Source: Haloactinospora alba
GTDB lineage: Bacteria; Actinomycetota; Actinomycetes; Streptosporangiales; Streptosporangiaceae
Reading direction: 5' to 3'
Length of the DNA stretch: 64,000 bases
NCBI RefSeq assembly: GCF_006717075.1
Contig: NZ_VFQC01000003.1
Span: 186,001-250,000 of the forward strand
Part shown: positions 20,647 to 23,934 of the stretch, in pieces
Numbering within the stretch: the first letter of the stretch is position 1
Layout of the letters: each line of letters begins with the position of its first letter
Translations under genes and position numbers: made by a program
Notes under the pieces: generated by a model
Database searches by the model: none
Seen by the model: only the letters and a program-made list of their open reading frames with translations
Told to the model about the DNA's origin: nothing

Positions 20647-20994
20647 ATGTCCCATTCCGCCTCGGAGGGAACGCCGGGTGAGGCACGGGAGCGGCCGGAG
20701 TTCCTGGCCGCCTTCGACGAGCTGCGCAGGCGCCCATCGGCGTCCGAGATCCTCTGGCAGTTCCGCGCGCACAACAGGGCGGAACGGCGCGTCCCCTCCA
20801 TCCTCGGTGCGGAGCGCAGGCGCGGTGATGTCGCACTGCCCGCCCCGGTGCTCGACCTGGAGCTGGAAAACCCCGACGACACCGATGAGGTGTTGGAACG
20901 CCTGGAGCAGCGCTGCGGCAACCACCCGGTGGTGAGGCTGGGGAAGAGCCAACGGTCGAACTCTTCTCCTGAGGGCACCGACGGTCGGGGGTGA
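20647..20994 (+). CDS. Uncharacterised 115-residue protein
   Basis: A 115-residue, charged, soluble protein (pI near neutral) with a helical segment [18 protein letters not shown] and an acidic stretch [17 protein letters not shown]. No signal peptide, TM or known motif is seen. The start ATG follows GGGAGAGAACC. It ends 36 bases before the large membrane protein at 21031, in the same direction, so the two are probably an operon. The family is not recognised. Confidence 0.55.
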
Positions 20995-21030
20995 GCCACT
21001 ACGGCAGAGCTGTTCGAGCTGCTTCGGTCA

Positions 21031-23934
21031 GTGAAGGAGGGGTTGAGCACCAACGGCCGGCAGGGTGGCAGCGATGAGCGGAGCAACACGTGGAAGGAGC
21101 AGGACCCGCCCGTCCCGGCCTTCCGCCGCCTGGACTCGCTGTTCGCTCTGGTCAAGTTGGATCCCTACCGGATCCGGGATCAGTACAACGACCAATCCTC
21201 AGAGGATGACGGGGACAAAAGCGAACAGGAAGGCGAGCCCCAGGATCAGGACACTGGCCAGTCCCGAGAAGACGCCAGAAGTGAAGGTAAACAGAACAAC
21301 AACCTGAACGCCCAGGACCGGAAGATCTATGTGCACGTGATCAACGCGTTGTGGGGCCAGCAGCCGCCGAAGCCCGATGTGCCATGGTCCCGCCGGCTGT
21401 GGAGGTTCAAGAAGTGGCTTTACTGGGTCCTCGCGTGGGCAACCAGCGTCTCCTTCGGCAAGCTGGACGAGAAGGTCCTCTCGCCGCTGTCGTTCATCGT
21501 TACGTCGGTCGCCTCCGTCGGGGTCCCCTCCATCGCGGCTGCCTTCGGGAACTTCAACACTTTCGTGACAGTCTCAGCAGCGGTTCTCCTGATGCTGTTG
21601 AACACCGCGCTGTGGTTCCTGGTGCTGTTCCCCTGGCGCAAGTACGTGTGGCTGCAGAAGCAACCCCACTCACTGAGGGAGCCACAAAACGGAGCGGAGC
21701 CAAACGGGACCCGCCACTACCGGGAAGTGGGGGTGCGGGTTCTCAACGCCTACCACGAGAAAACGAACAAGAACCAGGCGTTCGACGCCGAGGACCCTCC
21801 GGATATCCAGAAACTCGCCGTCAACGCCCTGTTGAGCGACCTCGAGGACGCCTACGGCATCAGCCGCTGGCGGCACCGGTGGCCGTGGCCGCGCCGGCAG
21901 CGGTTCCGCCTGCCCACACTGATCGCCGACGTCCGCCATCTCAGCGAGGCGGAGGTGCACCTGCTCCGGCTGATCGAACGCGCCCGCCTCTCCTGGAAGT
22001 TCCCCGACCCGCTCGTCGTCACGCTGGTACGACCGCGCGGCCAACCGCTCCCCGCGGGGATCGCCGGCGATGTCGCCGCCCGTGCCCGTAGGGACGCGCG
22101 CAAGGAGAAGGAGGGAGCGATCCAGCCGCCCGAGGTCCGGGAATGGCGGCGCGTCCGCTACCTCATCGGTCGGGTGGGGCAGCAACGGACCCTGACGATG
22201 GCCGTGGACACAGCATCCGCAAAGGGGGAGGTGGAACCCGACAGGCACTTCGCCTACACCAAAGCCATGCTGGCCCTGCGGACCTCTGCCTACACCGGCT
22301 GCGCCCTGTCAGCGGTGGTGACGCTTCTGGCCGCCGGGTCGCTGACCGCGCACGCACTCAACCCGTGCGTGCAGGGGGCGGCGCTGACACCGCCGAGCGA
22401 CGTCGACAATCGCGGGAAGGAGTGCGTGGGCCTGACCGACGGCTCGTTCGCGTTCGACGACCGCCTGGAGCGGGTGCAACAGCGGATCGCCGAGGAGAAC
22501 GAGGCGGTGGAGAAGTCCGACGAGCCCTACGTGACCGTCGTGTACCTGGGGGCCATGTCCCGGGAGGGCGGGAGCGCGGACGGCGGGAACGGCGACAGCG
22601 ACGCCCTGGCGGGCGTGCACGGCGAACTGGCGGGGCTCGCGGTGCGGCAGCGGGAGCACAACGAGGACCGCTCCGGAACCGGGGACGATCCCTCCCCGGC
22701 GCTCCGGGTGCTGCTGGCCAACACCGGCGCCCGCTGGCAGCACGGGCGTGAGGTGGCGCGACTGGTGGCCGAGAGGGCGCGGGACCCGGAGAGGGCGGGA
22801 GACGAGCGGATCGTGGCCGCGGTCGGCTTCGGACAGAGCCTGGAACCGACGACGGAGGCCGTCCGGGAGCTCACACGCGCCGCCATCCCGATGGTGGGCA
22901 GCACGACGACCTTCGACGGCATCGCCGAGATGGAGACGGGCGGGAGCAGTCCCTTCTTCTATCCCGTCGCGCCCTCCAACACCCGTATCGCCACCCAGGC
23001 CGCCCACTGGGCGCGGTACGGCGCCTCCCCCGCGGAGGAGGGCAGTGCGGGGCACCGGCTGGAACCCGCGGACACGGCGGTGGCGCTCGCCGACGACACG
23101 CAGGACGAGAGCTACGGGGTGGACCTGGCGTCCACGTTCATGCGGGAGTTCTCCACGCGGGGAGGGCAGGCGTACCAGCAGCGGGGGGCCGCGCCCCACA
23201 CCACCGCGGGGGGAGAGGAACTCCCGGAGGGTGTGGTCCCCTACGGAGCCGAGGCCGGGCGGACCCTGGGCGAGCGCATCGAACGGATCTGCCGCACGGA
23301 CCCCACACCGGACGTGGTCTACTACGCGGGCCGCTCCGACGAGTTCGGACAGCTCTACGGGAACCTCCCGCGCAACGGGGCGTGCGCGGACGGGATGACC
23401 GTCATCGGCAGCGACGACATCGCCAAGTACATCACCGACCACATCGAGAACCTCAGTGAGAACACCGGTGACTTCCCGGTGTTCTACACTCCCCTGGCCG
23501 CCAGCGACACCCGCTCCAACACCAGTGAGCTGAACGAGGACGGGTTCTACTCCGAGCTGGACACGTTCACGGCGGAGGAACTCGACCTCGGGGAGGAGAA
23601 CCCCGGGCGGGAACGGCCCTCGACCGCGCACGCGGTCATGGCCAACGACACCCTCACGGTCGTGGCCCGGGCGGCGACCCGGGCGGGGCTGGCGGACATG
23701 GAGCACCGCGGGGACTGGGAGACACCCACCTACCTGGACGTGGAGCTCCGCGCGACCGAGCGGGTCGCCGGAGTGAGCGGCGTGCTCGGTTTCGGGGGAG
23801 AGGAGGACCGCTGGAAGGACGACAAGCTCGTGCAGCTCGTCCAGGCCGGGCCCCGGCAGGAGCAGCAGTTCATCGCGGCGTGCGGGCGTATCACTCCCAG
23901 CACGGGCGACACGGGCCCCAACTGCTACCGGTGA
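21031..23934 (+). CDS. Membrane protein with extracellular PBP type I-like domain
   Basis: A 967-residue protein. An acidic Gln/Asp/Glu-rich N-terminal region (about 50-95) is followed by hydrophobic segments at about 155-175 and 177-203, a cytosolic basic region, and one more TM at about 420-443. Residues about 480-960 resemble a type I periplasmic binding protein: VTVVYLGAMSR, VLLANTGARWQHG, VAAVGFGQSL, IPMVGSTTTFDG and SPFFYPVAPSNTRIATQAA follow the LivJ pattern. It therefore looks like a membrane-tethered ligand sensor rather than a transporter component; no permease is adjacent. GTG 21031 and TTG 21043 are both possible starts, each close to AAGGAGGGG. The output is unknown. Confidence 0.7.
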   Translation: MKEGLSTNGRQGGSDERSNTWKEQDPPVPAFRRLDSLFALVKLDPYRIRDQYNDQSSEDDGDKSEQEGEPQDQDTGQSREDARSEGKQNNNLNAQDRKIYVHVINALWGQQPPKPDVPWSRRLWRFKKWLYWVLAWATSVSFGKLDEKVLSPLSFIVTSVASVGVPSIAAAFGNFNTFVTVSAAVLLMLLNTALWFLVLFPWRKYVWLQKQPHSLREPQNGAEPNGTRHYREVGVRVLNAYHEKTNKNQAFDAEDPPDIQKLAVNALLSDLEDAYGISRWRHRWPWPRRQRFRLPTLIADVRHLSEAEVHLLRLIERARLSWKFPDPLVVTLVRPRGQPLPAGIAGDVAARARRDARKEKEGAIQPPEVREWRRVRYLIGRVGQQRTLTMAVDTASAKGEVEPDRHFAYTKAMLALRTSAYTGCALSAVVTLLAAGSLTAHALNPCVQGAALTPPSDVDNRGKECVGLTDGSFAFDDRLERVQQRIAEENEAVEKSDEPYVTVVYLGAMSREGGSADGGNGDSDALAGVHGELAGLAVRQREHNEDRSGTGDDPSPALRVLLANTGARWQHGREVARLVAERARDPERAGDERIVAAVGFGQSLEPTTEAVRELTRAAIPMVGSTTTFDGIAEMETGGSSPFFYPVAPSNTRIATQAAHWARYGASPAEEGSAGHRLEPADTAVALADDTQDESYGVDLASTFMREFSTRGGQAYQQRGAAPHTTAGGEELPEGVVPYGAEAGRTLGERIERICRTDPTPDVVYYAGRSDEFGQLYGNLPRNGACADGMTVIGSDDIAKYITDHIENLSENTGDFPVFYTPLAASDTRSNTSELNEDGFYSELDTFTAEELDLGEENPGRERPSTAHAVMANDTLTVVARAATRAGLADMEHRGDWETPTYLDVELRATERVAGVSGVLGFGGEEDRWKDDKLVQLVQAGPRQEQQFIAACGRITPSTGDTGPNCYR

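What the first reader, a model, noticed from the sequence alone, without database searches (positions are those of the whole stretch)
20647..23934. Membrane-tethered binding-protein domain with no transporter
The large protein fuses several TM helices and a cytosolic part to a LivJ-like extracellular domain, with a small unknown protein upstream. No ABC permease or ATPase is nearby. It may be a one-piece sensor of amino-acid-like ligands or a cell-envelope signalling protein.
Basis: inference. Interest (0 to 1): 0.5.

Follow-up and report, generated by a model that had tools for sequence, protein, structure and literature searches.

The report
Broken surface receptor with crippled ATPase
This stretch is one gene, cut in two by a stop signal, for a cell-surface receptor that joins a nutrient-catching outer domain to a worn-out ATPase inside the cell; it belongs to a widespread but unnamed family of soil-bacterial receptors in which the same outer domain is wired to several immune-like signalling modules.

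Summary
The C-terminal domain of the 967-aa ORF has a type I periplasmic-binding-protein (LivJ/LivK) fold: AlphaFold pLDDT 87, Z 33.8 to LivK. No transporter gene lies beside it (my reading). The "small protein upstream" is not a separate gene but the N-terminus of the same protein, in the same frame, cut off by one TGA at 20992-20994; orthologues carry it in one ORF. The cytosolic part descends from a STAND/AAA-type ATPase and has lost Walker A.

Relatives explain it. In many Streptomyces, Nocardia and Pseudonocardiales loci the same membrane-anchored binding domain directly follows a separate P-loop ATPase gene. In most Streptosporangiales loci seen the two are fused, beside serC and citrate synthase. 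Elsewhere it carries TIR, TIR plus Ser/Thr kinase, or DUF4062. So it is best read as a receptor that signals inward, not a transporter part; in this genome it is probably a broken copy. No Pfam, NCBIfam or PADLOC family covers the window protein. Topology, ligand and signalling are inferred; nothing was tested at the bench.

The parts
20647..20994 (+). N-terminal fragment of the receptor gene (115 codons, ATG start); first strand and helix of the degenerate ATPase core
   Evidence: phmmer to N-termini of orthologues 1.6e-16 to 5.1e-8, profile 6.2e-25; strand 68-73 and helix 76-90 in the low-confidence model
20848..20889 (+). place where Walker A should be (window has [13 protein letters not shown] where partners have GPRGSGKT)
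   Evidence: hhalign to the P-loop partner family, 98.7%, E 1.5e-16; no G4xGK[ST] in the 72 other fused rows
20992..20994 (+). in-frame TGA that interrupts the gene
   Evidence: both flanking ORFs are in the same frame
20995..21030 (+). 12 codons ([12 protein letters not shown]) between the stop and the GTG, aligned with the continuous N-terminus of relatives
21031..23934 (+). main ORF, 967 aa, GTG start without an evident ribosome-binding site upstream
21487..21639 (+). predicted transmembrane hairpin inside the ATPase core
   Evidence: hydropathy; helices 270-299 and 305-338 of the low-confidence read-through model
21907..21930 (+). strand in the Walker B position (RLPTLIAD)
22294..22359 (+). 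third predicted transmembrane segment, before the outer domain
   Evidence: hydropathy; helix 535-571
22372..23934 (+). type I periplasmic-binding (Venus flytrap) domain, inferred to lie outside
19255..20376 (-). serC-like gene, conserved neighbour; not part of the receptor
24060..25166 (-). citrate-synthase-like gene, conserved neighbour; not part of the receptor

Best explanation
The region 20647-23934 is one vertically inherited gene, interrupted by an in-frame TGA, for a membrane receptor. The predicted layout is an N-terminal cytosolic STAND/AAA-like ATPase core that has lost Walker A and holds a transmembrane hairpin, then a third transmembrane helix, then an outer LivJ-type binding domain. 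The receptor family probably binds a small, amino-acid-like ligand outside; closure of the binding domain is passed through the membrane helix to the cytosolic module. In the two-gene forms that module is a separate P-loop ATPase; in the fused forms it is a pseudo-ATPase that can act only by conformation or by recruiting a partner. In this genome the full-length receptor is probably no longer made. Shown by computation: the fold of the outer domain, the homology of the small ORF, the shared frame, the lost P-loop, the two-gene relatives, the synteny. Inferred: topology, ligand class, signalling, loss of function.
For: One gene: same frame; the small ORF matches N-termini of orthologues, 37% over 91 residues to Marinactinospora. 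In 47 of 49 serC-linked loci (with repeats) one frame covers the fused profile from position 25 or lower to 897 or higher; L165 and L185 are in pieces. Outer domain. ATPase ancestry: hhalign to intact P-loop partners E 1.5e-16, negative control against the binding domain 1.1%; the best VIA row is a chain of the maltose-regulator entry 8bob, which I take to be MalT (Z 10.4, rmsd 3.9, 170 residues). All 72 other fused rows show homology to this ATPase part and none has Walker A; two more fused proteins, L033 and L236, keep it. Of 75 partner-type genes without the binding domain, Walker A is intact in 41, degenerate in 27, not found in 7. On a tree of 176 binding domains, pair (74 rows) versus fused (73 rows) needs one change. 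Signalling: TIR, kinase, DUF4062 on the same domain.
Against: The read-through model of the cytosolic part is weak (pLDDT 62.2, pTM 0.63); Foldseek gives it no match at E<=0.001. The fused-part profile reaches no P-loop protein in the PDB by sequence: its only two rows at E<=10 (RBL4 0.0034, an antenna complex 0.0077) look like chance. The name STAND for the partners rests mainly on AAA_16/AAA_22 hits, mostly under Pfam's cut-off. Only one genome of the genus is held, so a base-calling error or a strain mutation cannot be told from a fixed loss. The main ORF keeps coding-type third positions (GC3 0.78-0.97). Some relatives have ABC-type genes beside them. Ligand and output are untested; helices were placed by hydropathy only.
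Confidence: 0.74

Rival explanations
1. The gene is intact in the living strain and the TGA is a substitution error of sequencing or assembly; the receptor is full length and works.
For: Frame and coding composition hold on both sides; 47 of 49 serC-linked orthologue loci are in one frame.
Against: The assembly is in 4 contigs at 98.65% completeness. Both ORFs share a frame, so a single indel error cannot explain the stop. Two other orthologues are also disrupted. GC3 of the window's N-terminal third (0.78-0.88) is lower than in L071 (0.90-0.98) and, in most windows, L028 (0.88-0.97).
Confidence: 0.2
2. A genuine split gene: the 115-aa and 967-aa pieces are made separately, by re-initiation after the stop, and reassemble into the receptor.
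For: The GTG lies 36 nt after the stop; the stop falls in a stretch that varies among orthologues.
Against: No ribosome-binding site precedes GTG 21031; the nearest GGAGG lies after it, 2 nt before a TTG. No relative with the same split was found among 49 loci.
Confidence: 0.07
3. An orphan solute-binding domain that serves an ABC permease encoded elsewhere.
For: Type I binding proteins mostly serve transporters (general knowledge); one relative is annotated 'ABC transporter substrate-binding protein'; ABC-type genes lie on the other strand beside L117, L124, L184 and L186 (my reading).
Against: It is tethered to a cytosolic ATPase-like domain; the recurrent partner is a P-loop ATPase without permease; TIR and kinase fusions.
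Confidence: 0.06
4. A cell-surface immune or defence receptor of the STAND/TIR kind that triggers growth arrest or death on sensing an outside molecule.
For: TIR, TIR+kinase, DUF4062 and P-loop ATPase modules on one ectodomain family; caspase-TM-PBP proteins are reported in actinobacterial conflict systems (PMC7159879, section 33 read).
Against: No PADLOC family at E<=1 for the window ORFs and only weak ones for relatives; the Streptosporangiales locus sits in a conserved housekeeping neighbourhood, unlike a mobile defence island; the fused ATPase part lacks Walker A.
Confidence: 0.25

Closest known systems
LivJ/LivK-type substrate-binding proteins (type I periplasmic binding proteins; Pfam Peripla_BP_6 / ANF_receptor)
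   Same: Fold (Z 33.8 to LivK 3td9); S, T/S and D at three positions that align with LivJ-class pocket residues (LivJ contacts recalled).
   Different: Tethered to the membrane and a cytosolic domain; no permease or ABC ATPase beside it in the window; an R in 62 of 62 rows where LivJ has Tyr (recalled); extra N-terminal segment with conserved Cys.
STAND / AAA NTPases (MalT, Cdc6/Orc; PF13191 AAA_16, PF13401 AAA_22)
   Same: Separate partner genes match AAA_16/AAA_22; the window's cytosolic part is homologous to them and its model's best VIA rows are of this fold.
   Different: Walker A absent in the window and in 72 of 72 other fused rows; predicted transmembrane hairpin inside the core.
EACC1/caspase 'System 4' of Kaur et al. 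2020 (PMC7159879)
   Same: Actinobacterial two-gene membrane system; some members are reported to carry TM helices plus an extracellular PBP domain (section 33 read).
   Different: No caspase among 72 cytosolic parts or partners scanned; the partner here is a P-loop ATPase. Whether the PBP families are the same, and whether EACC1 lies near, was not tested.
GlnH-GlnX-PknG amino-acid sensing of mycobacteria and corynebacteria
   Same: A solute-binding protein signals through a membrane protein rather than transporting (starts of the abstracts of PMC9769921 and PMC6069109 in the listing).
   Different: GlnH is a separate periplasmic protein; here the sensor is tethered and the usual partner is a P-loop ATPase. 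A fused kinase was seen in one relative (L182).
Metabotropic glutamate receptors (class C GPCRs)
   Same: Same ectodomain fold joined to a membrane part (mGlu chains from 2.0e-14).
   Different: Different membrane and cytosolic modules; no common receptor ancestry is implied.

Membership tests
Type I periplasmic binding protein | Two-lobed Venus flytrap fold of the LivJ class | tested here: met
   AF2 pLDDT 87.1; Foldseek 1.5e-15; VIA Z 33.8; profile to 3td9 1.1e-11
Type I periplasmic binding protein | Amino-acid-binding pocket residues | tested here: inconclusive
   S in 62, T or S in 57 and D in 55 of 62 rows, window included; LivJ contacts are recalled and no ligand was modelled
ABC importer substrate-binding component | Permease and ATPase genes in the same operon | tested here: not met
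   none adjacent in the window (my reading); recurrent neighbours of relatives are serC/citrate synthase or a P-loop ATPase; ABC-type genes beside L117, L124, L184, L186 are on the other strand
STAND/AAA NTPase | P-loop NTPase core homology | tested here: met
   hhalign 98.7%, E 1.5e-16 to partners with intact P-loop, negative control 1.1%; VIA best Z 10.4 on a low-confidence model; against: no P-loop protein by PDB profile search
STAND/AAA NTPase | Walker A motif (active ATP binding) | tested here: not met
   absent in the window and in 72 of 72 other fused rows
EACC1/caspase System 4 | Caspase domain | tested here: not met
   no Pfam hit in the window ORFs; none among 72 cytosolic parts or partners
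EACC1/caspase System 4 | EACC1 gene upstream | not tested
   no EACC1 model was searched
Known anti-phage defence system | Match to a PADLOC model | tested here: not met
   none at E<=1 for both ORFs; for 10 relatives only weak matches, best 9.7e-5
Membrane receptor with C-terminus outside | Topology | not testable with these tools
   inferred from three hydrophobic segments and conserved Cys in the outer domain

The most novel reading that the evidence does not exclude
Actinomycetes carry a modular class of cell-surface receptors in which one family of Venus-flytrap ectodomain is plugged into innate-immunity-type cytosolic modules: a paired STAND-like ATPase, a fused pseudo-ATPase, TIR, TIR plus Ser/Thr kinase, or DUF4062. 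These would be bacterial counterparts of Toll-like receptors that sense small outside molecules. Fusion of ectodomain and ATPase went with loss of ATP binding, giving a pseudo-NTPase receptor lineage in Streptosporangiales.
Probability: 0.4. Interest if true: 0.8.

Novelty: new variant of a known kind. Interest (0 to 1): 0.55.

Why it matters
Bacterial STAND and TIR proteins are mostly known as sensors of things inside the cell (general knowledge). A paired or fused outer binding domain would give them an outside input, and the module swaps give a ready test set. The family is common (82 of 394 sampled genomes of the class, own genome included), yet the window protein has no Pfam, NCBIfam or PADLOC match and its relatives have only generic ones such as AAA_16, TIR_2 or Peripla_BP_6. 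The one annotated record I opened calls it an ABC transporter substrate-binding protein. The window copy itself matters less, as it is probably broken.

Tried and rejected
Searches of the two window ORFs gave nothing at E<=1 in Pfam, NCBIfam and PADLOC, nor did the large ORF in PDB sequences; only profiles from relatives reached known folds. The first genome-contig scan, with the window protein, confirmed no relative; the second, with alignment A2, found 157, 79 loci kept. Its two patterns contain ECVG-TDG and LAGVHGE, so the invariance of those motifs in A4 is partly by construction. A separate small partner protein was rejected. A KAP-type ATPase was considered because of the transmembrane hairpin; no such match appeared, which excludes nothing. 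An HTH at the N-terminus of L194 was seen by eye only; Pfam gave none. The first labelling of the tree called several rows 'fused' because frames had been extended upstream; one search corrected it, and 'fused' there means an N-terminal part of at least 140 residues; one search then found ATPase-type homology in all 72 such rows besides the window. The tree is FastTree with long branches and an unsure root. A7 was built from 17 intact-P-loop partners, so the count of 75 partners leans towards that type, and adjacency was checked only for the 74 pair rows. In one search only four candidates per genome were scored, so 82 of 394 is a lower bound. The phylum sample was tiny (1 of 11, the own genome). 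Profile searches of the PDB with the partner alignment hit P-loop proteins over the P-loop only (best 1.7e-8), and with the fused cytosolic alignment nothing relevant. One paper search with underscored family names was mangled by the tool and told nothing. I did not test whether the caspase-TM-PBP proteins of PMC7159879 carry this PBP family.

Counts contain repeats: L028/L070, L029/L048, L030/L069, L052/L163 and L071/L170 are the same loci by sequence or contig length. Seven rows were dropped before the Pfam scan of 72 cytosolic parts (listed).
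Full report
What is there. The window lies in an unnamed actinomycete genome (G000, 4.94 Mb, 4 contigs). 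ORF 21031-23934 (+, GTG, 967 aa) and ORF 20647-20994 (+, ATG, 115 aa) are both there, but they share one reading frame: only a TGA at 20992-20994 and the 12 codons [12 protein letters not shown] lie between them. In an alignment with single-ORF relatives the small ORF takes the place of their N-terminus. Tested alone, it matches the N-termini of orthologues with phmmer E-values from 1.6e-16 (L185, itself a broken orthologue) and 3.7e-15 (L187, unbroken) to 5.1e-8, and the orthologue profile with 6.2e-25. Pairwise it is 37% identical over 91 residues to Marinactinospora (E 6e-10); to its nearest relative by tree, L164, it matches only over 36 residues (3e-5). On the profile of fused relatives the small frame covers positions 1-75 and the large one 77-905. 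So this is one gene, interrupted.

Is the break real and is it shared? Among 49 loci with the serC neighbour (38 also with citrate synthase; five pairs are the same locus), 47 have one frame over the fused profile; L165 and L185 are in pieces at other places. The genus has no other genome held, so an error or a strain mutation cannot be excluded. A single indel error would change the frame and does not explain it. The GTG has no ribosome-binding site before it. Third positions remain coding-like (GC3 0.78-0.97), but are lower in the N-terminal third (0.78-0.88) than in two orthologues (0.88-0.98).

Outer domain. AlphaFold2 on window 22372-23931 with 61 homologues gives pLDDT 87.1 and pTM 0.92. 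Foldseek finds 749 PDB chains at E<=0.001, led by LivK 3td9 (1.5e-15), with mGlu-receptor chains close behind (2.0e-14). VIA-align gives Z 33.8, rmsd 2.9 over 347 residues to 3td9. Sequence profiles agree (4mlc 6e-11; 3td9 1.1e-11). The aligned pocket has S in 62, T or S in 57 and D in 55 of 62 rows where LivJ has, from memory, Ser79, Thr102 and Glu226; an R (62 of 62) stands where LivJ has Tyr202. That is compatible with an amino-acid-like ligand and no more.

Cytosolic part. The read-through N-terminal model is weak (pLDDT 62.2, pTM 0.63). Foldseek has no match at E<=0.001. Of the 50 VIA-align rows shown, the top ones are AAA/STAND ATPases by title: 8bob_C from the maltose-regulator entry, which I take to be MalT (Z 10.4, rmsd 3.9, 170 residues), origin-recognition subunits, and a Pyrococcus ATPase. 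Independent of the model, a profile of 19 fused N-termini (15 after filtering, window included) aligns with a profile of 17 separate partner ATPases at 98.7% probability, E 1.5e-16, from residue 19 of the small ORF onward. The negative control against the binding-domain profile gives 1.1%. Against this, the fused profile finds no P-loop protein in the PDB by sequence. The Walker A position reads [11 protein letters not shown] in the window where partners have GPRGSGKT.

Relatives. Matches lie in 18 of 60 related genomes (own included), 82 of 394 genomes of the class (own included, a lower bound) and 157 places in GTDB contigs, of which 79 loci were kept; the record titles of these 79 are all actinomycetes. 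In most fused Streptosporangiales loci the gene lies beside serC and citrate synthase, followed by pdxH-, DtxR- and SpoIIE-like genes (names from my reading of translations). Murinocardiopsis and Marinactinospora have the window's order; Actinomadura loci have one or two more genes in between; L032, L033 and L040 lie elsewhere. In many Streptomyces, Nocardia, Amycolatopsis, Lentzea, Kutzneria, Crossiella and Kitasatospora loci the same TM-binding domain (about 490 aa) directly follows a soluble ATPase gene of about 660 aa that hits AAA_16/AAA_22, mostly under Pfam's cut-off. Of 75 such genes, 41 keep Walker A, 27 have GSG[A/T]S in its place and 7 show neither. Of 72 fused rows besides the window, all show homology to this ATPase part and none has Walker A; two further fused proteins, L033 and L236, keep it. 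On a FastTree of 176 binding domains, pair (74 rows) and fused (73 rows) are separated by a single change, and P-loop loss among pairs needs four (29 rows of other kinds not counted). The root is unknown, so fusion and fission cannot be told apart; I favour fusion because the intact P-loops are mostly in the pairs.

Module swaps. Pfam finds TIR_2 on L038 (2.2e-34) and L216 (4.3e-34), TIR_2 (2.4e-24) plus Pkinase (1.3e-45) on L182, and DUF4062 on L220 and L229 (2.9e-13, 2e-12), each in one frame with the same binding-domain family. Among 72 cytosolic parts or partners of the class survey (7 more dropped before): AAA_16 14, AAA_22 11, DUF4062 5, TIR_2 2, Pkinase 1, no caspase.

Mechanism. Most likely a ligand closes the outer Venus flytrap and the change is carried by the membrane helix to the cytosolic module. 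In the two-gene form this would license a STAND-type ATPase; in the fused, P-loop-less form the core can act only by conformation or recruitment. That is inference from architecture. In this genome the receptor is probably not made whole. Against a pure signalling reading, ABC-type genes lie on the other strand beside L117, L124, L184 and L186 (my reading), though not as a recurrent partner.

What is known. No Pfam, NCBIfam or PADLOC family covers the window protein; relatives have only generic hits. Eight literature searches (the terms of 92 were mangled) over open-licence PMC papers gave one close precedent: Kaur et al. 2020 mention TM helices with an extracellular PBP domain in caspase/EACC1 systems (PMC7159879; section 33 and passages read). 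The TRADD-N paper (PMC8195603; passages only) had no occurrence of 'PBP' or 'periplasmic'. GlnH-GlnX-PknG (PMC9769921, PMC6069109; starts of abstracts in a listing) shows a binding protein used for signalling in Actinobacteria. I found no description of the ATPase-PBP pair or of the TIR/DUF4062 versions in those searches; subscription papers and preprints were not covered.

Verdict. Ordinary in fold, unusual in wiring: a probably broken member of a widespread, unnamed receptor family. New variant of a known kind.

Noticed in passing
L165:2995-6299 and L185:1200-4621: Orthologues in two other genomes of the family are also in pieces (different frames, breaks at other positions), hinting that this locus is dispensable in part of the family.
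   Followed up: partly
L182:1668-4601 (- strand): One protein with a TIR domain, a Ser/Thr protein kinase and the same outer binding domain.
   Followed up: partly
L091:3150-6718: In Amycolatopsis anabasis the TM-binding-domain gene follows what by eye looks like a class A penicillin-binding protein gene rather than an ATPase.
   Followed up: no
L047:7747-10381: The TM-binding-domain gene overlaps the end of a convergent gene that by eye looks like a Ser/Thr kinase.
   Followed up: no
window 53736-59071: A large RHS/YD-repeat-like secreted protein and a separate C-terminal-like piece downstream, possibly one interrupted gene; named by eye only.
   Followed up: no
window 3622-6705: A 1027-aa protein that by eye resembles sacsin/HATPase-type proteins.
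   Followed up: no
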